The notes under the pieces: model-generated
What the model was told of the DNA's origin: nothing
What the model saw: only the letters and a program-made list of their open reading frames with translations
The model's database searches: none
Shown: in pieces, positions 2,072-21,778 of the stretch
Layout: every line of letters starts with the position of its first letter
Position numbering within the stretch: the stretch's first letter is position 1
Assembly: GCA_016839865.1 (NCBI GenBank)
Contig: JAEOTN010000224.1
Span: forward strand, 1-28,883
DNA length: 28,883 nt
Source: Promethearchaeota archaeon
GTDB lineage: Archaea; Asgardarchaeota; Lokiarchaeia; Sigynarchaeales; MK-D1
Direction of reading: 5' to 3'
Position numbers and translations under genes: made by a program

Positions 2072-4468
2072 TTGATCAATGACCAAAATGATGAGATTTT
2101 CATGGAAGAATTCGAATTGGATTCTATTTTACCAAAATATATCATAAACTCACAAGCAGAAAAAGAACCATTTGATTTAGATCGAATTCGAAAGAGTCTG
2201 ATTATTGATGTAGGCTTAGATGATGAGATTTCTTCCGAAATAATAGAAGCTGTTGTTCGTAAAATCGTTGGTTTACTTAGTTTACAATACAAATCGATTT
2301 CTACCTATGCAGTAAAGGATTTCATTTGTGAAGAATTCTCATCCCGAGGAATGGATAAGTATCGGGACATATATGTGAGAATTGAGAAGAAAAAACGGAC
2401 AAAATTCGTCTTATCAGATCAATTTATTGATCAATATAGAGGTACTCAACCTGAATGGGGACCCTTAGGGTATATCACATACAAACGCACCTATGCACGG
2501 CCAATTGAGGGAGAAAATCGAACAGAAGAGTTTTTCGAAACCATTCGTCGTGTAGTTGAGGGTTGCTTTTCACTTCAAAAAGAACATTGCATTAAGCTAA
2601 GTCTTCCTTGGGATGAAGAAAAAGCACGAAAGTCTGCAGAAATTATGTATGTAAAGATGTGGAACTTTAAATTCAGCGCACCAGGACGTGGTTTGTGGGT
2701 AATGGGAACACCCTTTATTGACAAACATGGTTCAATGGCTCTAAATAATTGTGGGTTTTGTTCCACTGAAGATATTGACATAAAGGGTCCTATGGCATTC
2801 CAATGGTGTATGGATGCACTCATGCTTGGTGTGGGAGTGGGATTTGATACCAAAGGAGCAGGAAAAGTTACCCTCAAACAACCGGAAGAATCGAAAAGTG
2901 TTTATGTGATTCCAGACTCTCGAGAAGGTTGGGTAAAAGCGCTAGGAAAAGTATTAGATGGCTTATTCTTAGGAAATGCAATCCCTGAGTTTGATTATTC
3001 TCAAATACGCCCAGCAGGAGCTCCTATCAAAGGATTTGGAGGAGTAGCTTCTGGTCCTGGACCTCTAAAAGAGATGTTAGAAGACATTGAAAAAATGCTC
3101 CTGGAGAAAGTAGGAAATTCTCTTACATCTACAGATATTGTGGATATTTTCAATTTAATCGGTAAATGTGTGGTTGCAGGAAATGTACGAAGATCCGCTG
3201 AAATAGCTCTTGGAAATATGGAAGATGATGATTTCATTAATATGAAACAAGATATGGAATTGCTTAAACACCATAGATGGGCTAGTAATAACTCAGTCAT
3301 TGCTCATGTAGGGATGAAATATGACTCCATAGTAGAAGGAATTGCCACTAATGGAGAACCTGGTGTGTTATGGCTTGATAACGCCCAAAACTACTCAAGA
3401 ATCAATGGAGAACCAGATTATATAGACAAAAAAGCAAAAGGTGTGAATCCATGCGGAGAACAAACCTTGGAAAGCTTCGAGCTATGCTGTTTGGTAGAAA
3501 CTTTCCCTTCACGACATGAAACCTATGAAGAATATCAAGATACGCTTAAATACGCCTATCTGTATGCAAAATCAGTAACTTTGGAAAATACACATTGGGC
3601 ATTCACCAATGCTGTAATGGGTAAAAACAGACGAATTGGTACATCCCAAAGCGGTATTATTGATGCTTTTGTAAGGCATGGTAGGAAAAACATGTTAGAT
3701 TGGTGCGAAAAGGGTTATAATTATATACGCGAATTGGACGAAAAATACTCAGACTGGTTGTGCATTCCGAAATCCATAAAAATCACTTCTGTAAAACCAA
3801 GTGGGACTGTTAGTTTACTTCCCGGAGTATCCCCTGGAATCCATTATCCACATTCAAAATATTACATTCGGCGCATGCGGATTTCCACAAATCATGAAGA
3901 TCTAATCCCGGTATTAGAGGAAGCAGGCTACCACATCGAACCAGATGTTTATTCAAGAAATACAGTAGTGGTTGAGTTCCCCATTAAGGAAAAGTTTTTT
4001 GAAAGATCTAAGAACGATGTATCAATGTGGGAACAATTTGAGAATGCTGCAGCCTATCAACGATATTGGAGTGATAATCAAGTTTCGGTGACTGTAACCT
4101 TCAAGAAAGAAGAAGTAAAAGACATTAAATACGCTTTAGAATGCTACGAATCCAAGCTAAAAAGTGTGTCCATGTTACCAATTATGGATCATGGTTATGA
4201 ACAAGCACCTTACGAAGAAATCACAAAAGAACGCTTTGAACAAATGATTACTGGAATAACTCCCTTAAACTTGAAGAACATCACGACTCAAGCAATCGGA
4301 GAGGAGGGTTGTACAACAGATGCTTGTGAAATTAAAAAAGAGATTTCCCAAATAAAGGAAGCAATAAAGAACGGTAATGGTAATGGTATAATTTCACTTG
4401 AGAAAGATGAACGATTCGCTGATTTTTGTTTAGATCTTGATTCCAAAGAGGTAAAAAAAGAAAAATAA
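2072..4468 (+). CDS. nrdJ: Adenosylcobalamin-dependent (class II, RTPR-type) ribonucleoside-triphosphate reductase with N-terminal ATP-cone
   Basis: Reduces ribonucleotides to deoxyribonucleotides using a thiyl radical made by homolysis of coenzyme B12, so DNA precursors can be made without oxygen. Residues about 15-105 look like an ATP-cone, the dATP/ATP activity switch. The barrel follows, with RTYARPI, RGLWVMGT and NNCGFC (C227). Next come NPCGE (N459, C461 thiyl, E463) and C472, eleven residues after C461, which with C227 would form the redox pair; then SVKPSGT and SPGIHYPHS. The tail has C747-x4-C752, the shuttle spacing of the monomeric Lactobacillus RTPR, rather than a CxxC tail. That enzyme has no classical ATP-cone, so this combination is notable. 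The protein is 798 aa with a ~46-residue extension after the last Cys. Start TTG 2072 is favoured by AGGTG at 2058-2062; ATG 2102 is the alternative. Its stop is 8 nt from a convergent gene's stop. Confidence 0.95.
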   Translation: MINDQNDEIFMEEFELDSILPKYIINSQAEKEPFDLDRIRKSLIIDVGLDDEISSEIIEAVVRKIVGLLSLQYKSISTYAVKDFICEEFSSRGMDKYRDIYVRIEKKKRTKFVLSDQFIDQYRGTQPEWGPLGYITYKRTYARPIEGENRTEEFFETIRRVVEGCFSLQKEHCIKLSLPWDEEKARKSAEIMYVKMWNFKFSAPGRGLWVMGTPFIDKHGSMALNNCGFCSTEDIDIKGPMAFQWCMDALMLGVGVGFDTKGAGKVTLKQPEESKSVYVIPDSREGWVKALGKVLDGLFLGNAIPEFDYSQIRPAGAPIKGFGGVASGPGPLKEMLEDIEKMLLEKVGNSLTSTDIVDIFNLIGKCVVAGNVRRSAEIALGNMEDDDFINMKQDMELLKHHRWASNNSVIAHVGMKYDSIVEGIATNGEPGVLWLDNAQNYSRINGEPDYIDKKAKGVNPCGEQTLESFELCCLVETFPSRHETYEEYQDTLKYAYLYAKSVTLENTHWAFTNAVMGKNRRIGTSQSGIIDAFVRHGRKNMLDWCEKGYNYIRELDEKYSDWLCIPKSIKITSVKPSGTVSLLPGVSPGIHYPHSKYYIRRMRISTNHEDLIPVLEEAGYHIEPDVYSRNTVVVEFPIKEKFFERSKNDVSMWEQFENAAAYQRYWSDNQVSVTVTFKKEEVKDIKYALECYESKLKSVSMLPIMDHGYEQAPYEEITKERFEQMITGITPLNLKNITTQAIGEEGCTTDACEIKKEISQIKEAIKNGNGNGIISLEKDERFADFCLDLDSKEVKKEK

Positions 4469-5055: not shown

Positions 5056-5520
5056 ATGGGAAAACAACCAGATCCAAGCGAGAAAACGATTGATCAACTT
5101 GATGATCTGAATTTTCAAGTTCTTGATTTATTTGATCACATTGAAGAAAAAGACGCAGAAAAATTCGAAGAGAGATATTGTTGGAATGTTGGAGAGTATA
5201 GTAAATTACTCAGACAATTATTGGATATTTACCATGACGATTTAAGAACTAAAGAAGAAAAAACACAAATGAAACCGTATTTATTATATTATCGCGAACT
5301 CCAACAATACCTTGTTTATTTTGTACGATTTCCATCTGCGATGTATCAGAAAAATCACCCGTATCTGAAAGAACTACGAGAACTCATAGAAAAAAAGGGA
5401 TACATGCTTAAAGCAAAATATAAAGAGAAAGCTATTCAGGAAAGCATGCTTTTTGAAACAGACTTTCGTGAAAAACTAGAAAAAACATTAAGTAGGAGAA
5501 GATTGGGAGATGGAAGTTGA
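5056..5520 (+). CDS. Hypothetical small helical protein upstream of LarA
   Basis: A 154-residue, soluble, charged and apparently all-helical protein without cysteine-ligand clusters or membrane segments. I do not recognise it. Its gene overlaps the start of the racemase gene by 11 nt (stop 5518-5520, next ATG 5510), so the two are almost certainly co-transcribed and translationally coupled. It does not resemble LarB, LarC or LarE, the nickel-pincer cofactor makers, so it is not a disguised maturation factor as far as I can see. It might be a binding partner or regulator of the racemase. Confidence 0.7.
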   Translation: MGKQPDPSEKTIDQLDDLNFQVLDLFDHIEEKDAEKFEERYCWNVGEYSKLLRQLLDIYHDDLRTKEEKTQMKPYLLYYRELQQYLVYFVRFPSAMYQKNHPYLKELRELIEKKGYMLKAKYKEKAIQESMLFETDFREKLEKTLSRRRLGDGS

Positions 5521-6805
5521 TTTTTTATATGGTAGTTCGGGATTGAAAATTACACTACCAAAGGCTCTTCATACAACGGTGCTCAAAGCTCGTGAAATTC
5601 CAGGATTAGATGATCCGGTTCAAGAAATATATAACAAATTAGAGCGTCCAATGAGTTCTCAACCACTTAAGCAACTATTAGCAAAACAAATGAAAAAGAA
5701 AGAGGGAGACATCATTATTTTGGTTGATGACCATACACGCCCCATCTCAAGTAAATATTTTCTTGATGCATTGTCAAAGGTATTTCACTCGTTAAATATT
5801 GAAGATGATCGAGTCAAAATTTTAGTTTCTACGGGGTTGCATCGAAAATCTACTCATCAAGAATTGATACGGATGCTTGGTGAGGAACATATTAATAGAT
5901 TTGACATTATTTTTCATGACGCCAACAATGAAGCAGAACTAGAGCATGTTGGAGATACACCATCTGGAAATGAAGTTTACCTGAATACACACTATGTACA
6001 AGCAGCTTTTCGTATTGCTACAGGATATGTCGAACCTCATTTTTTTTCGGGGTACAGTGGAGGACGCAAAGCTATAGTCCCAGGTATAGCTGGAAAGAAT
6101 ACAATATTGTATAATCACTCAGCTGGGAACATACACTCAGAATATGCCCGATTTGGAGTGCTAGAGAACAATCTGTTGCATGAAGACATGCTGGAAGCAA
6201 CAAGGTTGATGAAACCAGAATTTTGTATTAATGCAATTATAAATCGAAATCACAACATTACTCATATTGCAGCAGGAAACATTTTCGCGGTTTTTAATCA
6301 TTTAGTCCAAATCCAAAATCAGGAATGTTTCAGAGACATCCCCCATGAATATGATATCGTAATCTGTGGTAATGGAGGATTCCCATTAGATTTAAACCTT
6401 TACCAAGCCGTAAAAAGTATGGTTATAGGAGAAATGGGCTGTAAGAAGGATGGGATTATTATCTCGGTTAATGAATGTAGAGATGGTGTAGGTCAAGAGT
6501 CATTTAAGGAACTAATTAATAGCGGTGATCTACCACGTGTGATTTATGATAAAGCTCTTAATGGAGAAATTACTGTTCCTGACATTTGGGAGATTCAAGT
6601 TATGGCACGTGTATTAATGCATCATTCTGTGTATGTAATTTCTTCCATGGAAGAAGCAGATCTTGGTAATACAGGTCTAAAATATGCTTCGAGTATACAA
6701 GAAGCGATTAACTATGGAATAGATGAATTAGGATTTAAAAAAGAAGAAGTTAAAATATTAATACTACCAGATGGTCCACTTGTTTTGCCCAAATTAACTC
6801 AATAA
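5510..6805 (+). CDS. larA: LarA-family nickel-pincer nucleotide racemase/epimerase
   Basis: LarA enzymes racemize or epimerize alpha-hydroxyacids by hydride transfer through a nickel pincer nucleotide tethered to a lysine. At 431 aa this has the normal family length. Key positions of the Lactobacillus plantarum enzyme are present at nearly constant offset: DHTR (D74, R77), H111 in GLHRK, H177 in VEPHF, the cofactor-linking K187 in SGGRK, nickel-ligand H203 in YNHS, and Q299/K302 in QAVK. The 16-residue K-to-H spacing is exactly that of LarA. It should therefore be an active, cofactor-loaded enzyme, but the substrate is not certain: the family includes malate, hydroxyglutarate, sugar-acid and other racemases. 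LarB/C/E are not in the window and must be encoded elsewhere. Its start overlaps the preceding gene; its stop lies 2 nt from the stop of the convergent membrane-protein gene. Confidence 0.9.
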   Translation: MEVDFLYGSSGLKITLPKALHTTVLKAREIPGLDDPVQEIYNKLERPMSSQPLKQLLAKQMKKKEGDIIILVDDHTRPISSKYFLDALSKVFHSLNIEDDRVKILVSTGLHRKSTHQELIRMLGEEHINRFDIIFHDANNEAELEHVGDTPSGNEVYLNTHYVQAAFRIATGYVEPHFFSGYSGGRKAIVPGIAGKNTILYNHSAGNIHSEYARFGVLENNLLHEDMLEATRLMKPEFCINAIINRNHNITHIAAGNIFAVFNHLVQIQNQECFRDIPHEYDIVICGNGGFPLDLNLYQAVKSMVIGEMGCKKDGIIISVNECRDGVGQESFKELINSGDLPRVIYDKALNGEITVPDIWEIQVMARVLMHHSVYVISSMEEADLGNTGLKYASSIQEAINYGIDELGFKKEEVKILILPDGPLVLPKLTQ

Positions 6806-6807
6806 TA

Positions 6808-8625
6808 TTATTTCTTATTCTTCTTGTTCTTTCGTTTTTTTACATTCTTTTTTCGTTTTTTAGCTTCGGCTTTATCTTGAATTCGCTTAATATATCTTAA
6901 GTCTCCTTGCCTCTCTGGTTCAGTTGTCTTCTTCTTATAACTAGAATCTAAGGCCGTTAAGAATGATTTACGCTCTTCTACATCAGAACTTACTCCTTTT
7001 GAGATTCCAAGTTCTTTTTTCTCCTCATCAGTAAGAGTCTCTGTCAATCTATCAGCCATAAACTGTTTTACTCTTTCTTCTGCTTCTGATTTTTTGTCAT
7101 AGGAATCATGAATAGAGATAAATTCTATGAATTTACGAGCACCTTTTGTAACAACCTGCAATTCCATATATTGTGAATCAAGATCGCGTTGAATAATATT
7201 CCGGACAGTGGTTTTTGAGGCACCTGTTAAATTTATTAGTTGATTATCTACATCTGTTAATGGAAATGGTTCTCCTCTACGAACGAATTCTCTTTTCAAG
7301 AATTCGTAAATGATCTCACGTTTCTCATCATCACTATCTATCACACCTTTGTGAGATCGAAGGAACATAGATGTAGCTTGAGGTCGTATATAATAAATCA
7401 ATAATGTTATCCCTAGGAATAGAATAATTAAAGCTGGGATAAGGAGATGGTCCATATTTATTAGATCTGAAAAATTTCCAACAGTTTGGTTTGGTATATT
7501 TGCAAATATGGGAATACGGGAAGCAGTCTGAGCGGTAACGGTTCCAAGAAAAACCATAATAAGTGAATCTTTGTTAAAAAAGAGAAGATTACCACTAACT
7601 TGTTTACTTAATACTCTAATTCCACGGAATAGAAAAACCATTGAAATAAAGAACTCGAGATAGAAGAAAATTGAAGTTCCACCAGTTCCTCCTCCCATAG
7701 AACCCATGGCTAGTTGAGTATTTGAATGAAGGATTAAATAAAGGGAGATTTGGTAGATTAAATACAAAAACATAAAAAAAACGATTAGAGAATACGCAAA
7801 ATTGTCAAAGGTTCCCATTCGTCTATTCTCTAAACGTAGTCGAGTCATTATAAGCTCAATCGCAAATAAAACAAATATAATGATTAAAGATACGTATAGA
7901 AAAGGCATAATAACTGTCATTTCGGTTCCATACATCAAGATTGCAGATGCTGGGTCTCCGCTAAAATAGGGGTGGTTCATCACAATAATGTCTAAAGTAA
8001 ACCAAACAAGCCCATAACGATATGACCAAACACCTATAGTGAGTACTATCAAAATTAAAAAGGGAATTATCGAAATGAAGATATTTACTAAAGGAGAATA
8101 CCTTTGTAGGGTTCTTGCTTCCATCTTACTAGCAAATTTTCTACTAGTATCATAAACTCGAACCCCCTGAATTATTAACCATATCATTGCAAGGATAAGT
8201 AGAGCAGGTAGCATATTCCATCCGGAAGCTATCAGATATCTCCATAAAAAGAAACTTCCATAAAGTAATCCAAAAAATAATGGAATCTGTTTAAGAACGT
8301 AATATGTACCAAAGAAAAATTGTTTGATTTTAGTATTTAAAAACAATATTGATAACATAAAGAATGTAAATACTAAAGATACAGATAGTGCATAAGGATT
8401 ATAGATAGTGAGGATTCTAAACACAAAATTATCCCAATTTGAAATTAAAATAAATGAGTAGATAAGAAAGATAATTATGAGAAATACGAATTTTTTCCCC
8501 CAGAAGATTCGGGTAGTTTTTTTTTGATGTTCCGATTTTCCGGTTAGAACCAATTTAACTCGTTCAAAAAAGGAATGTTGATGTTTTCTTAAGGATGATT
8601 TTGATGTCGTTTTTTTCGCAGTCAT
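6808..8625 (-). CDS. Polytopic membrane protein with cytoplasmic winged-helix-like tail
   Basis: A 605-residue protein of unknown family. After a short basic N-terminus, residues about 45-430 contain roughly ten hydrophobic segments, including a Gly-rich loop (MGSMGGGTGG) between two of them. Residues about 435-525 form a soluble module: EIIYEFLKREFVRRGEPFPLT, then LTGASKTTVRNIIQRDL and two strands. This resembles a winged-helix/HTH fold with the recognition helix around SKTTVRNI. The last ~80 residues are very lysine-rich. The design suggests a membrane-tethered transcription regulator or an integral protein whose tail contacts nucleic acid or ribosomes; this is inference. The gene stands alone between terminators: two T-tracts upstream end the opine dehydrogenase operon, and LarA converges downstream. 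Confidence 0.75.
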   Translation of the reverse strand: MTAKKTTSKSSLRKHQHSFFERVKLVLTGKSEHQKKTTRIFWGKKFVFLIIIFLIYSFILISNWDNFVFRILTIYNPYALSVSLVFTFFMLSILFLNTKIKQFFFGTYYVLKQIPLFFGLLYGSFFLWRYLIASGWNMLPALLILAMIWLIIQGVRVYDTSRKFASKMEARTLQRYSPLVNIFISIIPFLILIVLTIGVWSYRYGLVWFTLDIIVMNHPYFSGDPASAILMYGTEMTVIMPFLYVSLIIIFVLFAIELIMTRLRLENRRMGTFDNFAYSLIVFFMFLYLIYQISLYLILHSNTQLAMGSMGGGTGGTSIFFYLEFFISMVFLFRGIRVLSKQVSGNLLFFNKDSLIMVFLGTVTAQTASRIPIFANIPNQTVGNFSDLINMDHLLIPALIILFLGITLLIYYIRPQATSMFLRSHKGVIDSDDEKREIIYEFLKREFVRRGEPFPLTDVDNQLINLTGASKTTVRNIIQRDLDSQYMELQVVTKGARKFIEFISIHDSYDKKSEAEERVKQFMADRLTETLTDEEKKELGISKGVSSDVEERKSFLTALDSSYKKKTTEPERQGDLRYIKRIQDKAEAKKRKKNVKKRKNKKNKK

Positions 8626-8721: not shown

Positions 8722-9873
8722 TTATGTGGATTTTTGAGTCTCAATATTCAAATGTTCGTCGTCTGAGAGTATTTCTTCAGCTTTACTTTGTAATTCTGCT
8801 GAAATTTCGGGAACCGTAAGGACGCTCAATGGTAAGTCAATATTTTCAATAGATCTACCTTTTTCTCGAAAATCTGTATCCAATATCACGTTTGCTAAAT
8901 CGATTAGGGAGTCAATAACAGGAGTTGGAACTCCAATGTGTTTACCTAAAGAAGAAAGTGGAACTAATCCTGTAGGCACATCCTCCCAAAGATATCTAAC
9001 ATTCATCGTTTTCGGAGCAGTTATATTTCTGTAACTACGAATTCGCTGGAAAGTTTGATAATAATTAGGTTCTCTTACTCGATACACAGTGTCAGCCCAT
9101 TTCATGAAAGTTATAGGTTTCATCCCTAGCTTCTCCATAATTGCACACCGTTCTTTATCAGCATGTTCAACAATCTTAACTACTTCTTTAGACATCCCTT
9201 CTGAGTAAAAGAAAAGATCTTCTTTGCGTGAAATTGTTCCCGTGTTCATAAGTAAACCCGCAGGATGAAGCATAGCACCAATGTTATTCAAGCTTGTAAT
9301 TTTGATATCATCTACATCTTCTAAACGCGGAAAAAGTTTGAAGATAGTAGTCGTCACACGCTCGTTGAATTTCTCGGGGTAAAAACAGTACTGCACTTGG
9401 GTTTTGATATCAATGATATCCACTCCATTATCACCAAGTAATCTACTTGTGAAAGGTAATGTTTGAGTTTCACCAACATACACACGGAGATCAGGTCGTA
9501 ATTTCTGAAGAGTTGTATATACTTCAATTGCACCCCACGTTCTCCCTGGAGTAAGTAATATAATTTGACTATTTTGTAAAAACGGTGCAATTTTTCGGGT
9601 GATATCTCCATGAACATTTGCAGGAACTACATAAATGATCACTCCTACGTCTTCCTCTAAAAGCTGTGAATATTCTGGAGTGACTAAATCAATATCAAAA
9701 ATTCCTTTAAGTTTTCCTTGAGATTGCAGCTGTTTTGTGAAATATAAATTCTTAACTTTATCAAAAGTTCGGAAATGGAGGTTAATTGTAAATCCCCGGT
9801 GTTTTAGATAGGCTGCTGTAGCTCTTCCACCATTTCCAGCACCTATAATCGCGATCTTATTGTAATCAATCAT
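8722..9873 (-). CDS. NAD(P)-dependent octopine/nopaline-type (opine) dehydrogenase
   Basis: Family members join an amino acid's amine to an alpha-keto acid by reductive N-alkylation, or run the reverse oxidation. The order is classical: Rossmann domain with GAGNGG (residues 11-16), then an all-helical domain with NNIGAMLHPAG. There H203 is the family's catalytic base candidate, paired with an aspartate in the helices that follow (EHADKER). Further matches are YSEGMS and EDVPTGLVPLSSLG, followed by GVPTPVIDSLI. At 383 aa the length is normal for the family. The ATG overlaps the TGA of the upstream mutase-like gene (ATGA, 9870-9873), so the two are translationally coupled and probably act in one pathway. 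Which amine and keto acid it uses cannot be read from the sequence; a non-opine 2-hydroxyacid or metallophore-type role is possible. Confidence 0.9.
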   Translation of the reverse strand: MIDYNKIAIIGAGNGGRATAAYLKHRGFTINLHFRTFDKVKNLYFTKQLQSQGKLKGIFDIDLVTPEYSQLLEEDVGVIIYVVPANVHGDITRKIAPFLQNSQIILLTPGRTWGAIEVYTTLQKLRPDLRVYVGETQTLPFTSRLLGDNGVDIIDIKTQVQYCFYPEKFNERVTTTIFKLFPRLEDVDDIKITSLNNIGAMLHPAGLLMNTGTISRKEDLFFYSEGMSKEVVKIVEHADKERCAIMEKLGMKPITFMKWADTVYRVREPNYYQTFQRIRSYRNITAPKTMNVRYLWEDVPTGLVPLSSLGKHIGVPTPVIDSLIDLANVILDTDFREKGRSIENIDLPLSVLTVPEISAELQSKAEEILSDDEHLNIETQKST

Positions 9874-11570
9874 TTAATGACACCTCGGTTTTTTATAGTT
9901 TTTTCTTGTGATGTTTCATGAATTATGTTTAAACTTTCAATTCTTTGTTGTTCATTGATTTCGTATCCGTTGGAATCAATCACAACACACTTTCCGTCAA
10001 TGATTTCTGTGAATATTACTCCTTTTGCTCCAATAAATCCTTTTAGCTGAGGAGCATCGAACAACCCAACTTTAACGGCTTCACTCAGACATTCTGGAGA
10101 TAAATAGGGATTTTTATATCCCATACTATGACCAAGTTGCTCGAATGATGTGATAATCACTTGAGCTTGATCTAACAAGTCATTCTTTCTTTCTTGTATG
10201 ACTTGGTCGAGTTGATAATTAGGTATATTGTTCACTCCGTCTTGAATGATCTTATTAACCATTTTACAACTCTCAATTACATCATCTGGTTTTGCCGCAT
10301 GGCTAGCTTCCGAATAGGATACTACATGAACTATATCAGGTTGGATAGATAATTGTAACATAGTTGATGCTGCAAGTTGTCCTTTTGCTTGAGTTTGATC
10401 ACATGACAGATAAGCTAGACCTGTGCGGGTTTCTTTGTAGACTTTGAACCCTACATCTATTAACGGATTAACAACGTCGACCATAGCGAGAACTCTAGCA
10501 AGATCCATATTGAATGTATTTCCAGCAGGTGTGTTGAACATCATTTGTTCAATGTATTTACTTACACCAAGGTCTTTTGCGATGCGAGCTACAATATAAG
10601 CATCAGCTACCACCATAGCATCTGATGCTTGACGTAATCCCCACTGATGAGGATCATTACATTCTACTGGAATGTTATTACATGCATGCCATCGGATTGC
10701 ATCGAAATGTTCTTGAATCGCGTCTTTAATAGGCAGAGGACCTCTACCATCAAGTTGGGAATACCAGAAAATTGGTATTGCAGCCCATGCGTTATTGATT
10801 GTTGAATGGAAAAGTTCAGCATTTTTAACTAAATCTTGAGTACCTGAATAGATCCGCAACAATGGAGAATTCCCAGTGCGACTACTACTATATAATTGTT
10901 CTAAATGAGATCTACGACGAATTGGTACTCCACCAGATCCTTTTGGTTTGTTCTTAATTATTTCGGGATGATGGAACCACTCTTGTGCAGCTTGATCTGG
11001 TGCAATTGAAATGATATCCAAGACTTTTGACACTGCAATTTCCCGAATACCCTTATAAGTTGCTTCCAATGTAGGCAATCCAAAATGTGCTCGAATAACT
11101 GGATAGGGTTTTTTTAATTGAATTCTTGATACTAAATCTATTGGGTAGACAATTTTGCCATCAGAGATACTATTCACTTGGAAAATTGAATAAAACTCAT
11201 CTAACGGTTCTCCTCCAGTAAAAATCTTCTTGAAGAATTTCAATTTTTTAGCAAGTTTTGCTAATTCCGGAAGACAACCAAGATAGTATTGTCTATCCGA
11301 CAGTTTTTTGATTTTTACTTGCTGAATAAACTGCTTGATAAGAGAATATCCCACTTTAGGGGTTAATCGATACGATAATGCAATGATTTGAGCAGAAGAA
11401 TTTTGTACTTTTGTGATAAGGTCAGGAATCGGGACAGCAGCACCTATAAACTCAGTTTGATATCCATATTGTTGGGCGATTCTAAGAAATTTTGTTAAAC
11501 CCGCCACATGGATGCAGTCTCCTAAGCAAGCTCCTGCAATAGAGTTTTTACTAAGATTTTCTTTACTCAT
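9870..11570 (-). CDS. Cobalamin-binding mutase-like protein (B12 domain fused to glutamate-mutase-like TIM barrel)
   Basis: A 566-residue protein with an N-terminal B12-binding Rossmann-like domain (about 1-125) and a TIM-barrel domain (about 150-480). The B12 part begins GDCIHVAG (D18, H21, G24), then IGAAVP, the Ser of LSYRLTP (S66) and GGEPL, matching the order of the GlmS-type domain of glutamate mutase. The barrel has RAHFGLP, GGVPIRRRS, INNAWAAIP, DGRGPLP, PVECNDPHQW and MFNTPAG. These resemble the GlmE (MutE) barrel, with arginines that could bind substrate carboxylates. In glutamate mutase the two parts are separate proteins; here they are fused, B12 domain first. A carbon-skeleton or amino-group rearrangement is inferred; the substrate is unknown. 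The start ATG 11570 has an excellent SD (AGGAGG). The gene overlaps the opine dehydrogenase by 4 nt. Confidence 0.8.
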   Translation of the reverse strand: MSKENLSKNSIAGACLGDCIHVAGLTKFLRIAQQYGYQTEFIGAAVPIPDLITKVQNSSAQIIALSYRLTPKVGYSLIKQFIQQVKIKKLSDRQYYLGCLPELAKLAKKLKFFKKIFTGGEPLDEFYSIFQVNSISDGKIVYPIDLVSRIQLKKPYPVIRAHFGLPTLEATYKGIREIAVSKVLDIISIAPDQAAQEWFHHPEIIKNKPKGSGGVPIRRRSHLEQLYSSSRTGNSPLLRIYSGTQDLVKNAELFHSTINNAWAAIPIFWYSQLDGRGPLPIKDAIQEHFDAIRWHACNNIPVECNDPHQWGLRQASDAMVVADAYIVARIAKDLGVSKYIEQMMFNTPAGNTFNMDLARVLAMVDVVNPLIDVGFKVYKETRTGLAYLSCDQTQAKGQLAASTMLQLSIQPDIVHVVSYSEASHAAKPDDVIESCKMVNKIIQDGVNNIPNYQLDQVIQERKNDLLDQAQVIITSFEQLGHSMGYKNPYLSPECLSEAVKVGLFDAPQLKGFIGAKGVIFTEIIDGKCVVIDSNGYEINEQQRIESLNIIHETSQEKTIKNRGVIK

Positions 11571-14304: not shown

Positions 14305-15441
14305 TTAATTATCAGAGTCCTTCGATTCTTCATCATTATACTTCTTCAATGCACTCATTATGTCATCAATATTATCTTTATCTCGTTTCTGCTCTTCTGT
14401 GAATAAATCATATAAGGAGTCTTCAATTTCATCTAAGCTCTTTTTCCTTTCCTTATCCGCTTTTTTCGCTTTATCTTTCGCATCCTTTTTCTGTTTTCGT
14501 TTTAAATCTTGAAGTTTCTTTTTTGTAATTTTACTTTCTTGTATTACTTTATCATAGTGATCTTTCATGTATTTCACGCCGAAATTGATAATATCGCTGA
14601 AAGTATTCCATTTTTTCTTTTCGATCAACTTTTCCATCCAAATATAAAGTGCATAATTAATCGGAACGCTGATTACCTTATTTTCAAAACTTAATCCATC
14701 AATTTCTGTCGAATAAGCCAGCCAGTTAAAAATATTTGAGGTCAGAACATTATTATCATACGCATTAAAACCATAAGTCGAGCTTAAAGAGGATAATATC
14801 GACATATTCCCTAAACCGACAACTTTTCCTTCGAAATAATTCACTGCAACAAGAACGGGGACATTTGGACTGTCTTTTTCTTCTCCATTTTGAGTCGTAG
14901 TAAACGCATTTAAACCACTTCTCGCCAATATATGAATATCAATATTCTCATCTACACTAAGAAGTTCCTCAACTGAAAGAGTACATCCAGATGCATGAAC
15001 AAAATCTTCAACTTCACGAGTTACATAATGTTTCTCAAATCGTGTAATTAATGGGCGGTTTTGCTGACGAACATAGTTCAAACTATCAGAAAGCGTGTCT
15101 GCGTTAAATGTGAATCCAAAAGTGGAAGTTAACTCGTTTAAGTTGGTCTCATTGCCGTCATCTCCGCCATCGTCATGGATAATAAATAATCCCCCTCCCT
15201 TTGTCACAAAATCAATGATGATTTCGATTTCATGAGGTGTGAAAACTGACTCAAAAGGACTTCCAAGTACTAAAACATCATACAGTTTTAGTTTCTCAGG
15301 AGTAATTCCTGTGGTGATTTTACCGACTTTATAACTACTAGTAAATAAAAAGTGAATGAATTCAGCGTAAGCCGTGTTTTCTATTTCCAAACGATTGTTG
15401 TGAGAATAATCGAAACAGATCGATTTGAGATTTTCTGCCAT
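14305..15441 (-). CDS. GldG/IFT52-like (GIFT, GATase1-fold) domain protein
   Basis: A 378-residue soluble protein. Residues about 1-240 look like the flavodoxin/GATase1-like GIFT domain shared by the gliding protein GldG and eukaryotic IFT52. The signs are a strand followed by NTAYAEFIHFLFTS, YDVLVLGSPFESVFTPHEIEIIIDFVTKGGG with the strand LFIIHDDGGDDG, a threonine/asparagine-rich connector and VVGLGNMSILSS. A short helical segment follows (about 255-300), then a strongly charged lysine/glutamate coiled coil (about 305-378). Such domains are ligand-binding or scaffolding and usually lack the amidotransferase triad; none is obvious here. Eukaryote-like function is only a possibility, because bacteria and archaea also have this fold. 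It is divergent from the Trm11-like gene, sharing a 113-nt promoter region. Confidence 0.7.
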   Translation of the reverse strand: MAENLKSICFDYSHNNRLEIENTAYAEFIHFLFTSSYKVGKITTGITPEKLKLYDVLVLGSPFESVFTPHEIEIIIDFVTKGGGLFIIHDDGGDDGNETNLNELTSTFGFTFNADTLSDSLNYVRQQNRPLITRFEKHYVTREVEDFVHASGCTLSVEELLSVDENIDIHILARSGLNAFTTTQNGEEKDSPNVPVLVAVNYFEGKVVGLGNMSILSSLSSTYGFNAYDNNVLTSNIFNWLAYSTEIDGLSFENKVISVPINYALYIWMEKLIEKKKWNTFSDIINFGVKYMKDHYDKVIQESKITKKKLQDLKRKQKKDAKDKAKKADKERKKSLDEIEDSLYDLFTEEQKRDKDNIDDIMSALKKYNDEESKDSDN

Positions 15442-17054: not shown

Positions 17055-19856
17055 TTGAGAAATCCGAGTTCTGTGGTATACATGAGTCAATCCATTCGGA
17101 AGCAAGGTGTGTTAGGTAAATATTTCAAAAAATACTGGTATCTCATTGCAATATCAGTGATTTTTGCTACAGCTTCTAATATATTCTCACTAAGACTACC
17201 ACAGTTTATTTCAATTTTGATTGATGACATTATCCCCACGTTAAATGGGGAGACACCTATCACATTAGATGATAATCCCTTGTGGTTCACATTCAGTGAT
17301 AATACTATGTGGGATTTCATAATCAATCTTGCTTTAATCTTCTTCATAGCGGGAATGTGTGAATTAGTTCGCATGATATTCCAGCAAAATTTACGTACAA
17401 ATATAATATTCAATATTCGGAACGACATGTTTGTTGCGTTATCACGTCAAAGTTATAGCTTCTACGATAAGAACAGAACAGGTAACTTAATGAGTAAGGC
17501 AACAAGTGACGTGAATGCTATCAAAAACTTCCTAGCGAACCAATTCCAAAATCTTATTCGAAATGTAGTTTCTCTATTCATCATTTTCTTTTATGTTTGG
17601 CAAATCCAACCTGTTATGACATTCATTTTCATAGGTTTAACCCCTCCATTATTCGTACTTATGTTCTGGTACCGTAAACGCATACGACCAGCATCTAAAG
17701 CAATGTATGAATCACGAGGTCAGTTACTCTCTACAATAGAGGAAAATATAGGTGGGGTCCGTGTTGTCAAAGCATTTGGTAGACAGAAATTGGAGAAGGG
17801 CAAGTATAATCGCGATAACGATATTTTCTTAGGTAAAAGTAGGCGTGTAATTAGTTTACAAACTATATATGGACCCCTCTCTGAATTTTTCACGATGGCG
17901 GGATCAGCGGGAATATTGTTATTGGGAGGTTGGCTAGTCACTCATGCGGATGCAGGAGCATTCACTCTTGGATCTGTCGTTGCTACATTTACCTATTTTG
18001 TTACAGTATACGAACCAATTCGTGGAATTGTGAATTTCTTTAATGAATTATCAGCTAATAGAGCAGCATTAGAACGTGTAAATGAAATCATTGAGAATCG
18101 CAATGAAATTCAGGTTCCTACAACACCAATCGATCCAAGTCGTGCGCTTGGAGATTTATATATTCGATTGTTAAAAGATGAAAAGATAATTGATAATATA
18201 GATGCTCTTATCGGAATGCCGAAACCCGAAGAAACTAGAAGAGAAAAACGTACTAAGCGATATTTAAAAAGATTTGAAGAGACAACCATCCTTCCCAAGA
18301 ATGTAAAAACTAGTGCTGTTGAAACCATATATTTCAAAGGAAATGAGCCTATCATATTCAATGGATTAAATATTATTACCCCTCTCTCACAAAAAATTTC
18401 TATTTTAACAAAACGTCCTGAATTTTTAGATGAATTGGATGAATTGAGTAAAGAGGAAGTAAAAACAAGTGAATTACGAATTGATAATCCAAACACATTT
18501 ATCGCCCGTTATTTATTCTATCTTTTGAAAAATCACGAATTGATGGAAAACATATATCGTAGATTGCGGATGGTGTATGATACCACTTTAAGCGAGCTGC
18601 GAAAGGATCCATTAGATGCTTTACTAGTTTATATCGATCATTTTGCAGAAAATGAATTTGAACAAATTCGAGTCACGGAGTTACAAAAAACAATATACTC
18701 TCCAGAACCTCAAGTTCATACCGCAATTGCAAAAAAATATGAGAAATTACTAATAAAAAAAGGAATTGTGCCAGCACCTCGAAAGGATTCAGTTGTAGGG
18801 TCAAAAGTTATCACACAGGATGCGTTATCCTTTCTCCGATTAGAAAAAGAAGTATTAAAAAGGCAATTTGAAAAAATCCATAACAAACGTTTGAAGAGAA
18901 TTACAACAGAGTCGCCTTCTGATATTCCTATACCGAAAATCATTCCAATCCAAATGAATACAAAGTTTGAGGATTTAGCATGGACACCCGTAGATCCAAG
19001 TGAATTCATTGGGCATGTTGTATTAAAAGAAGTTAATTTTTCCTACGATGAGGTAGCTGATAATCAAGATCCAAAACTCGCTCTTCGAGACATCAATCTT
19101 GATATAAAACCAGGTGAAACAGTAGCTTTTCTGGGAGCTACGGGTTCTGGGAAAACAAGTTTGATCAATCTGATACCCAGATTTTATGAGGTAACCCAGG
19201 GGAATATCTATATTGATGGAATTGATATTCGAGAATTAGATTTAAACCATTATCGTCAACAAATAGGAATTGTTGCACAAGAATCATTTCTATTCTCTCG
19301 CTCAATTAAAGACAACATCTGTTACGGAAAACCTCGAGTCCGTGAGGAAGATATGTATGCAGTTGCAAAAATTGCGAAAATTCATGAATTTGTTATGGGT
19401 CTTCCAGATAAGTATGATACAGTTGTAGGAGAACGGGGACAGACTCTAAGTGGTGGGCAGAAACAAAGGGTAGCAATTGCAAGAGCGTTACTTCAGGATC
19501 CAAAAATCCTCATCCTCGACGATAGCTTAAGTGCAGTAGATGTTGACACTGAATTCGAGATTCAAGAAGCATTGGAACACTTATTTGAAGGGAGGACAAC
19601 ATTTATTATAACACAACGACTTTCCACCGTGCGTAATTGTGACCGTATATTCATTTTGGATGATGGGAAAATCGTTGAACAAGGAACTCATGAATATCTC
19701 ATTAAATTGAATGGAATTTACACTAAAATTTACCAGACTATGTATAAACGTCATGTTCGTGAAAAGGAGATTTCAGCTATACAAGATGAGGAGCAACATG
19801 TAGAAATCCCCTATGATAAAACTAAGCCTAAAAGATCCGAGGAGGTTTCCGATTGA
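17055..19856 (+). CDS. ABC exporter subunit 1, with ~300-residue insertion between membrane and ATPase domains
   Basis: An ABC type-I exporter half-transporter (MDR-like) of 933 aa; family members are about 580-620 aa. Residues about 30-345 hold six transmembrane helices. A large insert of charged helices follows (about 357-650, nt 18123-19008). The ATPase domain then has Walker A GATGSGKT (694-701), a Q-loop in VAQES, an intact LSGGQ (798-802), and degenerate catalysis: Walker B ends D822-D823 where Glu is usual, and the H-loop has Gln854 for His. It would not hydrolyse ATP with its own Walker motifs but lends a good signature to the partner. The likelier start is ATG 17082 (residue 10), given the TATA position. 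The stop overlaps the next gene by 4 nt. Substrate unknown; drugs, lipids and peptides are typical for the class. Confidence 0.92.
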   Translation: MRNPSSVVYMSQSIRKQGVLGKYFKKYWYLIAISVIFATASNIFSLRLPQFISILIDDIIPTLNGETPITLDDNPLWFTFSDNTMWDFIINLALIFFIAGMCELVRMIFQQNLRTNIIFNIRNDMFVALSRQSYSFYDKNRTGNLMSKATSDVNAIKNFLANQFQNLIRNVVSLFIIFFYVWQIQPVMTFIFIGLTPPLFVLMFWYRKRIRPASKAMYESRGQLLSTIEENIGGVRVVKAFGRQKLEKGKYNRDNDIFLGKSRRVISLQTIYGPLSEFFTMAGSAGILLLGGWLVTHADAGAFTLGSVVATFTYFVTVYEPIRGIVNFFNELSANRAALERVNEIIENRNEIQVPTTPIDPSRALGDLYIRLLKDEKIIDNIDALIGMPKPEETRREKRTKRYLKRFEETTILPKNVKTSAVETIYFKGNEPIIFNGLNIITPLSQKISILTKRPEFLDELDELSKEEVKTSELRIDNPNTFIARYLFYLLKNHELMENIYRRLRMVYDTTLSELRKDPLDALLVYIDHFAENEFEQIRVTELQKTIYSPEPQVHTAIAKKYEKLLIKKGIVPAPRKDSVVGSKVITQDALSFLRLEKEVLKRQFEKIHNKRLKRITTESPSDIPIPKIIPIQMNTKFEDLAWTPVDPSEFIGHVVLKEVNFSYDEVADNQDPKLALRDINLDIKPGETVAFLGATGSGKTSLINLIPRFYEVTQGNIYIDGIDIRELDLNHYRQQIGIVAQESFLFSRSIKDNICYGKPRVREEDMYAVAKIAKIHEFVMGLPDKYDTVVGERGQTLSGGQKQRVAIARALLQDPKILILDDSLSAVDVDTEFEIQEALEHLFEGRTTFIITQRLSTVRNCDRIFILDDGKIVEQGTHEYLIKLNGIYTKIYQTMYKRHVREKEISAIQDEEQHVEIPYDKTKPKRSEEVSD
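18123..19008 (+). other. Insert region within ABC exporter subunit 1
   Basis: About 295 residues (357-651) between the last membrane helix region and the first strand of the ATPase domain (GHVVLKEV). The rest of the protein aligns with normal exporters on either side. The insert is polar, lysine- and glutamate-rich and mainly helical, with motifs such as FIARYLFYLLKNHELMENI, and is in frame without stops. I recognise no domain. It would sit in the cytoplasm close to the coupling helices. Confidence 0.65.
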
Positions 19857-21778
19857 GCGAAAAGAAGTCCAGAAAGACTAGAAGAGAAAGACGGATTGCA
19901 CGGCAAAAAAGGAAAAAAAACATCACGGAAGAAGAACAGAGAACATGGAAATATCGAGATATTGTGATCTTCAAACGTTTATTTGGTTATCTGTTGGGAT
20001 ACCGGAAGAAAGTATTCTTTTTATTCATTCTATCCATAATAGTGTCTTTGGGAGGGTTAGCTTTCCCCTTGATGATGTATCGGATAATAAACTCTATTCA
20101 GAGCGTCACTGACGACCCTCTTGTGAGAGCTCAAGCTTGGAAAGAAATCTTGATTGCTTCTGCAACATTGCTTGGAATCGTTTCCGTTAACGTCGTCCTC
20201 AAATGGATCTACCAAAGAAATATCGCTAATCTCAGCTTAGCTGCCATAAGTGACATTCGAACTGATCTATTCGATCATCTTCAAACTCTCTCTTTAAAAT
20301 ATTACACATCTCGACCATCTGGCAAGATTTTAAGCACATTATCTAACGATGTTGATAGAGTTAACAATTTAATTTCATCTGCAGCAATTCAAATCATTGC
20401 AGATTTACTCACAGTTGCTATTTCGATTACGCTGATGTTATTTTTCTCATGGCGTTTAACGTTCCTTATCTTAGGGTTTGTACCAATTTTGGGAATCATT
20501 TTCTATTTAATAGCTCGAAAGGCAAGAGAATACTGGAGAAGAACCCGGCAAACTATAGCAATCATTACAAGTCTACTTCAAGAAGCAATTAAGGGTAGTC
20601 GAACAATAAAAGCATTTGTTACCGAACAGCAAAATATTGAAAGTTTTGAATTGGCTACGGAAGCAGATCGTAGTGTAAATTTATCAGCTGCAAGACTACA
20701 AGCGTTCCTCGCCCCTCTAATTCAAATCATCATCGCTTTGATTATGGGAACTATTCTTATTGTGGGTTCAAGACTCGTGGATTCAGGAGATTTGACTATT
20801 GCTGAATTAGTATCTTATTTTATGCTAGTTGCGGTATTTATTGGACCTTTGGCAAATTTAATTAATTTCTATAATACAACCCAGCTAGCTATGGCTGCAG
20901 GAGAGCGAATACTAACTATTTTAGACACACAACCCCATATTACAGTTCCAGAAAATGCTACTCAAATAGATAGAATAAAAGGTAATGTTGAATTCAAGAA
21001 TTTGAACTTTCAATACGTAAAGGATGTCTCTGTCTTAAAAAATGTCAATCTAGAGGTCGCTCCAAATCAATCAATTGCATTTGTAGGATTCACAGGAGCT
21101 GGAAAAACCACTTTAATCTCATTATTGTCAAGATTTTATGATCCTTCAGAGGGATCTATCCTAATTGATGGAATTAATTTAAGAAATATTGAACCAGAAT
21201 CACTCCGAAAACAAATGGCAATCGTTCTTCAAGATACATATCTTTTCAGTGGAACGGTTATGGAAAATATCCGATATGGTAAACCTGATGCTACAGATGA
21301 AGAAATATTGGAAACTACCAAGAAACTAGGAGCCCATAAATTTATAACAAAATTGGTTGATGGTTACGAGACAGAAGTCCGAGAGAGAGGAAGTCTTTTA
21401 TCGGTAGGGCAAAGACAACTAATTTCTTTTGCACGTGCCCTAATTGCTAATCCACGGATTTTGATTTTAGATGAAGCCACCTCTAGTGTAGATCCATACA
21501 CAGAGTTACAAATTCAAGAAGCTCTACGCACTTTGCTTAAAAATCGAAATTCATTTATCATTGCTCATCGATTATCCACAGTTTTAAATGCAGATAAAAT
21601 TTATGTGCTTGAGGATGGGAAAATCATTCAAACAGGCTCTCATGAAGAATTAGTTAAGGATAAAGAGGGATTATATAATCACTTGTATGAAATGCAATTC
21701 ACTCGTCCTAGTGCAACGTTTGATGAACTCGAAAAGCATGTCTTAAAAGAGCGTAGGAAGAAATACGCAAGAACCTAA
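19853..21778 (+). CDS. ABC exporter subunit 2 (catalytic partner)
   Basis: A 641-residue ABC type-I half-exporter: a very basic N-terminal tail (about 1-30), six transmembrane helices to about residue 340, then the ATPase domain. Walker A is GFTGAGKT, the Q-loop VLQD, Walker B LDEAT with catalytic E541, and H-loop H572. The signature is LSVGQ (516-520), with Val in place of the first Gly. Together with subunit 1, this gives one normal ATP site (Walker motifs here, LSGGQ from subunit 1) and one degenerate site, as in TM287/288, LmrCD and BmrCD. Start TTG 19853 has a strong SD (GAGGAGG, 7 nt away), overlapping the preceding TGA. No insert comparable with that of subunit 1 is present. The substrate is not deducible. 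Confidence 0.93.
   Translation: MSEKKSRKTRRERRIARQKRKKNITEEEQRTWKYRDIVIFKRLFGYLLGYRKKVFFLFILSIIVSLGGLAFPLMMYRIINSIQSVTDDPLVRAQAWKEILIASATLLGIVSVNVVLKWIYQRNIANLSLAAISDIRTDLFDHLQTLSLKYYTSRPSGKILSTLSNDVDRVNNLISSAAIQIIADLLTVAISITLMLFFSWRLTFLILGFVPILGIIFYLIARKAREYWRRTRQTIAIITSLLQEAIKGSRTIKAFVTEQQNIESFELATEADRSVNLSAARLQAFLAPLIQIIIALIMGTILIVGSRLVDSGDLTIAELVSYFMLVAVFIGPLANLINFYNTTQLAMAAGERILTILDTQPHITVPENATQIDRIKGNVEFKNLNFQYVKDVSVLKNVNLEVAPNQSIAFVGFTGAGKTTLISLLSRFYDPSEGSILIDGINLRNIEPESLRKQMAIVLQDTYLFSGTVMENIRYGKPDATDEEILETTKKLGAHKFITKLVDGYETEVRERGSLLSVGQRQLISFARALIANPRILILDEATSSVDPYTELQIQEALRTLLKNRNSFIIAHRLSTVLNADKIYVLEDGKIIQTGSHEELVKDKEGLYNHLYEMQFTRPSATFDELEKHVLKERRKKYART

What the first reader, a model, noticed from the sequence alone, without database searches (positions are those of the whole stretch)
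8722..11570. Operon coupling a fused B12 mutase-like enzyme to an opine dehydrogenase
Seen: a B12-binding domain fused to a glutamate-mutase-like barrel, whose TGA overlaps the ATG of a classical octopine/nopaline-type dehydrogenase. Known: glutamate mutase uses separate S and E subunits, and opine dehydrogenases condense amino acids with keto acids. Inference: a rearranged amino or keto acid is fed straight into a reductive N-alkylation, or an opine is oxidised and then rearranged. I know of no described pathway that pairs these chemistries, so this is the best candidate for a new system in the window.
Basis: partly seen in the sequence, partly recalled or inferred. Interest (0 to 1): 0.78.

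Follow-up and report, generated by a model that had tools for sequence, protein, structure and literature searches.

The report
B12 mutase and opine dehydrogenase operon
An Asgard archaeon carries a two-gene operon, shared by many anaerobic bacteria, that pairs a vitamin-B12 rearranging enzyme with an opine-making enzyme; in bacteria it is often switched by an osmotic-stress RNA sensor, so it probably makes an unknown protective solute.

Summary
Window 9870-11570 (-) encodes a B12-binding domain fused to a glutamate-mutase-E-like TIM barrel. Its TGA overlaps the ATG (ATGA) of an opine dehydrogenase at 8722-9873 (-). The pair is strongly conserved: 78 of 85 mutase-bearing Bacillota genomes have the dehydrogenase within 1.5 kb. 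The neighbourhood is already in print as an unexplained B12 family (Zhang 2009, PMC2667541), so the association is not new.

New here:
1. c-di-AMP riboswitches lead the operon in 27 of 60 Bacillota loci.
2. 127 of 128 paired dehydrogenases carry Arg111+Gly199, the pair that makes metagenomic opine dehydrogenases prefer acidic amino acids (PMC10787698).
4. A D-Ala-D-Ala-ligase-like or an Asn-synthase gene, never both, lies nearby in 33 of 160 loci.

Best explanation: an AdoCbl mutase and an NADPH opine dehydrogenase together make a rearranged, acidic-amino-acid-derived opine, in Bacillota when c-di-AMP is low; probably a compatible solute, analogous to N-epsilon-acetyl-beta-lysine. Substrate, order of steps and product are inferred. 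No riboswitch was found in the window or in 20 Asgard loci.

The parts
9870..11570 (-). AdoCbl-type mutase-like protein (MUT), 566 aa: N-terminal B12-binding domain plus glutamate-mutase-E-like TIM barrel
11181..11549 (-). B12-binding Rossmann domain (about residues 8-130), weakly similar to corrinoid proteins, GlmS and OraE
11499..11516 (-). C19-x-H21-x-x-G24: counterpart of DxHxxG; His21 (predicted cobalt ligand) and Gly24 invariant in 90 of 90 aligned sequences, Cys in place of the Asp
10023..11147 (-). TIM barrel (about residues 142-516); invariant residues include R160, H162, D192, Q196, R239, Y241, D274, R276, E303, R313, R382
9870..9873 (-). ATGA overlap: stop of MUT and start of ODH
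8722..9873 (-). CENDH-type opine dehydrogenase (ODH), 383 aa
9541..9543 (-). Arg111 of ODH (acidic-substrate determinant; Ala111 in ArODH)
   Evidence: PMC10787698
9277..9279 (-). Gly199 of ODH (partner determinant; Asn198 in ArODH)
   Evidence: PMC10787698
9265..9267 (-). His203 of ODH, predicted catalytic His of the His-Asp dyad
8980..8982 (-). Asp298 of ODH, predicted catalytic Asp of the dyad
9769..9771 (-). Arg35 of ODH, indicator that NADPH is accepted
   Evidence: PMC10787698
11580..11585 (-). AGGAGG ribosome-binding-site-like sequence before MUT
   Evidence: read by eye

Best explanation
The operon encodes two consecutive steps of a biosynthetic pathway. MUT is an adenosylcobalamin-dependent carbon-skeleton mutase of the glutamate mutase superfamily with its B12 domain built in. 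ODH uses NADPH and a keto acid, most likely pyruvate, to N-alkylate an acidic amino acid. Together they make a rearranged opine; the simplest version is glutamate to 3-methylaspartate by MUT, then N-(1-carboxyethyl)-3-methylaspartate by ODH, but MUT may instead rearrange the opine that ODH makes. In some genomes an ATP-grasp ligase or an Asn synthase then amidates or extends a carboxylate. The product is probably a compatible solute: in Bacillota a c-di-AMP riboswitch would keep the operon off until c-di-AMP falls under osmotic stress. Shown by computation: conservation, fold, active-site signatures, riboswitch placement, partners. Inferred: B12 use, substrate, order of steps, product and physiological role.
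For: Pairing: ODH within 250 nt in 74 of 80 GTDB loci and within 1.5 kb in 78 of 85 MUT-bearing Bacillota genomes; both gene orders, 5 order changes on the MUT tree, 93 of 128 pairs overlapping, tree distances correlated at r 0.83 against a maximum of 0.11 in 999 permutations; one 920-aa open frame holding both, L047.

Role: c-di-AMP riboswitches in 27 of 60 Bacillota loci, upstream on the operon's strand; in an unselected phylum sample 9 of the 26 riboswitches of MUT genomes lie within 1 kb upstream of ODH, 0.005 expected. Na+ and c-di-AMP riboswitches control the osmolyte mutase gene ablA (PMC9337991, passages).
Against: No activity has been measured for MUT. Glutamate mutase's three claw arginines align to His162, Gln196 and Tyr241 and the loop with Tyr177 and Tyr181 is missing (profile alignment, 85% probability), which argues against free glutamate bound as in GlmE. 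c-di-AMP riboswitches also serve K+ transport and cell-wall genes. None was found in 20 Asgard loci (L217-L236), in the window or in 10 Chloroflexota loci, so the osmolyte role in the window's own lineage is carried over from bacteria. Of the 80 loci only 3 had one: L063 (Bacillota) and L029 and L048 (titled only 'bacterium'). 33 Bacillota loci of 60 had none. Most loci show neither ligase nor Asn synthase (33 of 160 do), and 4 of 20 ligase and 3 of 13 Asn-synthase genes are on the other strand. Kinetics of the characterised ODHs with L-Asp are modest (kcat 0.1-1.6 per s, KM 0.5-25 mM), so the true substrate is not known. Whether those six enzymes come from MUT-linked operons could not be checked.
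Confidence: 0.5

Rival explanations
1. Catabolism: ODH oxidises an opine or secondary amine, and MUT rearranges the released amino acid for fermentation, as in the glutamate mutase or ornithine aminomutase pathways.
For: Many named hosts are fermentative anaerobes such as Lutispora, Alkaliphilus and Maledivibacter (names seen; their metabolism is recalled). Ornithine aminomutase is also followed by a dehydrogenase (recalled). Orr-like racemase near the pair in 7 of 160 loci, GlmL in 9 of 160.
Against: NADPH-type Arg35 in 118 of 129 rows; c-di-AMP riboswitch control in 27 of 60 Bacillota loci; ligase and Asn synthase partners cost ATP; no amino-acid uptake or ammonia-lyase family among the 30 neighbour proteins annotated, a partial look.
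Confidence: 0.13
2. Cell-envelope or peptide building block: the product is joined to a peptide by the D-Ala-D-Ala-ligase-like enzyme, under c-di-AMP control as for other wall genes.
For: D-Ala-D-Ala-ligase-like gene in 20 of 160 loci, Lgt in 8, MurNAc-amidase in 4; c-di-AMP riboswitches also regulate wall remodelling genes (PMC9337991).
Against: The order ligase-like, Orr-like, MUT, ODH occurs on one strand in five Lokiarchaeota loci (L021, L023, L037, L042, L073), and archaea lack peptidoglycan (recalled). The ligase scores below the curated cut-off for D-Ala-D-Ala ligase (194.5 against 243 bits, one protein tested).
Confidence: 0.15
3. Opine-type metallophore or other secreted metabolite, like staphylopine or pseudopaline.
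Confidence: 0.07
4. MUT is a corrinoid methyltransferase (databases name it 'methionine synthase') and not an AdoCbl mutase.
For: Names; its B12 domain scores best against methyltransferase corrinoid proteins (7xcn, 1bmt) and an unnamed corrinoid-like protein (4jgi).
Against: The first 28 rows of the structural comparison are AdoCbl mutases and none is a methyltransferase; some homologues match MutE; GlmL beside some members and MutL fused to a paralogue.
Confidence: 0.05

Closest known systems
Predicted novel B12-dependent family of Zhang et al. 2009 (PMC2667541, passages read)
   Same: Same neighbourhood: protein with N-terminal distant B12 domain, always adjacent to pfam02317 dehydrogenase, with D-Ala:D-Ala ligase and Asn synthase nearby; Clostridia, Lactobacillales, Chloroflexi, Thermotogae.
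   Different: That paper had orthologues in 11 bacteria and, in the passages seen, no substrate clue, regulation or function. Its sequences were not compared here; identity of the families is inferred from the description.
Glutamate mutase (GlmE + GlmS), Clostridium cochlearium 1cb7
   Different: One fused chain, B12 domain first; arginine claw R66/R100/R149 replaced by H162/Q196/Y241; E171 becomes D274.
CENDH / ArODH, Arthrobacter 1C (1bg6), and metagenomic mODHs (PMC10787698)
   Same: Same fold as 1bg6 (1.6 A over 341 residues), His-Asp dyad; Arg111+Gly199 as in the mODHs, and Arg35 as in five of the six.
   Different: ArODH has Ala111/Asn198, prefers apolar amino acids and NADH; no link to a B12 mutase in the passages seen.
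AblA/AblB N-epsilon-acetyl-beta-lysine osmolyte pathway
   Same: An amino-acid mutase plus an N-modifying enzyme; ablA of Dehalobacter is under tandem Na+ and c-di-AMP riboswitches (PMC9337991, passages read).
   Different: AblA is a radical-SAM/PLP aminomutase and AblB an acetyltransferase (both recalled); homology to the present pair was not tested and is not expected.
Ornithine 4,5-aminomutase / lysine 5,6-aminomutase
   Different: Segment with the PLP-binding lysine is an insertion absent from MUT (lysine position recalled).

Membership tests
AdoCbl carbon-skeleton mutase superfamily (glutamate mutase class) | Mutase-type TIM barrel | tested here: met
AdoCbl carbon-skeleton mutase superfamily (glutamate mutase class) | B12 domain with cobalt-ligand His in an HxxG context | tested here: met
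   H21 and G24 invariant in 90 of 90
AdoCbl carbon-skeleton mutase superfamily (glutamate mutase class) | Asp of the DxHxxG motif | tested here: not met
   Cys19 at that position in at least 90% of A2
AdoCbl carbon-skeleton mutase superfamily (glutamate mutase class) | AdoCbl-dependent isomerase activity | not testable with these tools
   needs purified protein
Glutamate mutase proper | Arginine claw R66, R100, R149 (PMC10947579) | tested here: not met
   aligned to H162, Q196, Y241, all invariant in A2; profile alignment with 19 MutE proteins, 85% probability
Glutamate mutase proper | Separate E and S subunits | tested here: not met
   one chain, B12 domain N-terminal
PLP/B12 aminomutase (OraE, KamD/E) | PLP-binding lysine in the B12 domain | tested here: not met
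   the segment holding that lysine is an insertion in OraE and 5,6-LAM relative to MUT; position of the lysine recalled
Corrinoid methyltransferase / MetH | methyltransferase-type barrel | tested here: inconclusive
   mutases rank above all; a family not listed is not excluded
CENDH-type opine dehydrogenase | PF02317 above cut-off and CENDH fold | tested here: met
CENDH-type opine dehydrogenase | Catalytic His-Asp dyad and NADH-sensor Arg | tested here: met
   H203 and R293 in 128 of 129 rows (the other a fragment), D298 in 122 of 129; roles from PMC2924402 passages, residue number of the scallop Asp recalled
Acidic-amino-acid opine dehydrogenases (mODH) | Arg111 with Gly at 198/199 | tested here: met
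   127 of 129 aligned rows of 128 paired ODHs; 5 of 20 ODH sequences from genomes without a MUT match
Acidic-amino-acid opine dehydrogenases (mODH) | Activity with L-Asp or L-Glu and pyruvate | not testable with these tools
   needs assay
c-di-AMP-regulated osmolyte operon | ydaO/c-di-AMP riboswitch in the leader | tested here: inconclusive
   met in 27 of 60 Bacillota loci; not found in the window and in 0 of 20 Asgard loci L217-L236

The most novel reading that the evidence does not exclude
A new osmolyte class, 'rearranged opines', made by a new AdoCbl mutase whose true substrate is not free glutamate but an opine or other larger acidic compound, with an opine dehydrogenase as fixed partner. 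It would be a first use (as far as I recall) of AdoCbl radical chemistry in osmoadaptation, shared by Asgard archaea and anaerobic bacteria and under c-di-AMP control in Bacillota.
Probability: 0.3. Interest if true: 0.87.

Novelty: new variant of a known kind. Interest (0 to 1): 0.72.

Why it matters
A B12 family flagged in 2009 with no function turns out to be common (74 of 195 Asgard, 85 of 398 Bacillota and 16 of 301 Chloroflexota genomes) and now has a testable product class, a regulator and a likely substrate type. If right, it adds a B12-dependent route to compatible solutes, explains what a share of the c-di-AMP riboswitches of anaerobes control (9 of 26 in the MUT genomes of one sample), and gives Asgard archaea, including cultured Prometheoarchaeum (which has the mutase), an unknown intracellular metabolite to look for.

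Tried and rejected
Glutamate mutase proper: rejected on the claw residues and fused build. PLP aminomutase: rejected, lysine-bearing segment absent. Methionine synthase naming: disfavoured. Metallophore: no supporting neighbours among those annotated. Lactate/malate-type racemase LarA (5510-6805) as pathway member: among the first 80 loci found only near L001 and L002, and on the opposite strand in the window; rejected. Lgt and V-type ATPase subunits (8 loci each), O6-methylguanine methyltransferase (4) and SpoIIE (one locus annotated) were taken as lineage synteny without a test. B12 and Na+ riboswitches: no Rfam match at gathering threshold in 40 short loci, 9 longer Bacillota loci and 7 further sources with the window. 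Papers pairing opine or octopine dehydrogenase with glutamate mutase, or opine dehydrogenase with cobalamin and mutase: none; papers with opine, osmolyte and compatible solute: four, unrelated judging by the listing. The original ydaO surveys (Nelson 2013, Block 2010) are not held, so whether they already list this operon is unknown.

An error of mine: the first profile comparison with MutE (34% probability) contained one wrong-frame ORF (L249) among its 20 rows; without it (19 rows) the probability is 85% and the claw residues map to the same MUT residues.

Limits: the 160 loci hold two genomes twice (L024/L158, L069/L167), and 6 of the 160 had no intact mutase ORF by my caller and were dropped from the adjacency count (133 of 154 within 400 nt). 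The 26 rows of A1 were chosen by hand from 120 listed hits; only 80 of 436 matching GTDB stretches were returned. For long flanks I fetched the 60 best Bacillota places after G005 (of 86 places in 85 genomes) and 20 Asgard ones (of 74 genomes) from lower in the list. ODH counts come from the four best candidates per genome. The riboswitch model R1 was built from Bacillota only.
Full report
WHAT IS THERE. An AGGAGG lies just upstream of the first. The second protein passes the Pfam Octopine_DH cut-off (143.6 bits against 30) and its closest solved relative is N-(1-D-carboxylethyl)-L-norvaline dehydrogenase, 1bg6 (2.8e-55). The first has only a sub-threshold B12-binding match, but homologues make the domain clear: 26 of 26 aligned members, the window's included, match B12-binding at E <= 0.01 and 5 of 26 match MutE. 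Databases call it methionine synthase or a B12-binding protein. The named close homologues are Lokiarchaeota/Promethearchaeota, so the window is probably from an Asgard archaeon.

CONSERVATION OF THE PAIR. In 80 GTDB loci (of 436 matching stretches) an ODH lies within 250 nt of MUT in 74, once on the opposite strand (L054). Two more have it at 1.5 and 4.3 kb, and four have none on contigs of 3.1-4.6 kb. By gene calling it is within 400 nt in 133 of 154 loci. In a draw of 398 genomes from the phylum of Maledivibacter (here Bacillota), 85 have MUT, 78 of these have ODH within 1.5 kb, 83 have both somewhere and 24 have ODH only. MUT occurs in 74 of 195 Asgard, 85 of 398 Bacillota and 16 of 301 Chloroflexota genomes at E <= 1e-60. 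The order is MUT-ODH in 52 and ODH-MUT in 76 of 128 pairs, same strand in 127, overlapping in 93; tree distances correlate at r 0.83 against a maximum of 0.11 in 999 permutations; the order changed 5 times on the MUT tree by parsimony. L047 (Anaerolineaceae) reads MUT and ODH as one 920-aa frame, with a Met at the old junction; an assembly error there is not excluded. A diverged paralogue is fused to MutL in L236 (1217 aa), and a similar long frame stands beside a diverged ODH in L155.

PARTNERS. Within five genes of MUT, a D-Ala-D-Ala-ligase-like ATP-grasp gene lies in 20 of 160 loci (16 on the same strand) and Asn synthase in 13 (10 on the same strand), never both. An Orr-like racemase is found in 7 (5 on the same strand) and GlmL, the accessory protein of methylaspartate mutase, in 9 (7 distinct genomes, all on the same strand). 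Five Lokiarchaeota loci (L021, L023, L037, L042, L073) show the order ligase, racemase, MUT, ODH on one strand. Most loci have none of these.

REGULATION. Rfam finds c-di-AMP (ydaO) riboswitches in 10 of 30 short Bacillota loci and 0 of the 10 Chloroflexota loci scanned. A covariance model built from those ten finds them in 27 of 60 longer Bacillota loci, in 0 of 20 Asgard loci and in 3 of the 80 first loci (L029, L048, L063); the window has none. In the loci with a match they lie upstream of the operon on its strand (for L214 the ODH position comes), sometimes ahead of the ligase gene (L063, L206, L213), and in L188 there is one before Asn synthase and one before ODH-MUT. As a background check, 65 of 101 Bacillota genomes hold riboswitch matches. 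The 20 MUT-bearing ones among the 101 hold 26 riboswitches, of which 9, in 8 genomes, are within 1 kb upstream of ODH on the same strand; chance expectation is about 0.005. The other 12 MUT-bearing genomes show no riboswitch there.

HOW IT PROBABLY WORKS. High c-di-AMP signals that the cell is not in osmotic distress and c-di-AMP riboswitches then shut genes off; tandem Na+ and c-di-AMP riboswitches control the osmolyte gene ablA in Dehalobacter (PMC9337991, passages read). By analogy the present operon makes a solute. MUT supplies or rearranges an acidic amino acid skeleton, ODH joins it to a keto acid with NADPH, and, where present, Asn synthase or the ligase masks a carboxylate. The order of MUT and ODH cannot be told. 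3-Methylaspartate is the natural guess for the ODH substrate if MUT keeps the glutamate mutase reaction, but the altered claw weakens that. In Asgard archaea the regulatory evidence is missing, so the role there is carried over by homology.

WHAT IS KNOWN. Zhang et al. 2009 (PMC2667541, passages of section 8 read) predicted a B12-dependent family always adjacent to pfam02317 with D-Ala:D-Ala ligase and Asn synthase nearby. That description matches this system, although I did not compare sequences. A text search for at least three of four such terms found only that paper. I found no paper giving a function (listings, within an open-access library only). The contribution here is therefore regulation, fold, substrate-type signature, archaeal spread and a concrete hypothesis, not the discovery of the pair.

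Noticed in passing
window 14305-15441 (-): Protein matching the IFT52 GIFT domain (5.8e-11), a domain named after a eukaryotic intraflagellar transport protein, in a probable Asgard archaeon.
   Followed up: no
window 5510-6805 (+): LarA-type nickel-dependent 2-hydroxyacid racemase, 398 bits against a 460 cut-off; among the first 80 loci found beside the pair only in L001 and L002.
   Followed up: partly
window 6808-8625 (-): 605-aa protein with many hydrophobic stretches (by eye) just downstream of ODH on the same strand, no confident family.
   Followed up: no
window 2072-4468 (+): Class II (B12-dependent) ribonucleotide reductase domains, with only a short piece of the barrel matched: a second B12 enzyme in the window, possibly interrupted or divergent.
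   Followed up: no
window 25446-28883 (-): Long HEAT/TOG-like repeat protein running off the window end.
   Followed up: no
window 17055-21778 (+): Two adjacent, overlapping ABC exporter genes of MsbA type.
   Followed up: no
L236:1-3651; L155:212-4560: Paralogous mutase in a frame of about 1200 aa, fused to MutL in L236; in L155 it stands directly beside a diverged opine dehydrogenase (133 bits): a possible second version of the pair.
   Followed up: partly
L039:6989-8074 (+): D-glutamate-cyclase-like gene between MUT and Asn synthase, another hint at glutamate-family chemistry.
   Followed up: no
L193, L194, L197, L203, L204, L208, L209, L211: In eight Bacillota loci the pair sits beside V-type ATP synthase genes.
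   Followed up: no
L290:6320-7423; L291:4486-5616: ODH with the Arg111+Gly199 pair in genomes where no mutase was found: possible loss or incomplete assemblies.
   Followed up: partly
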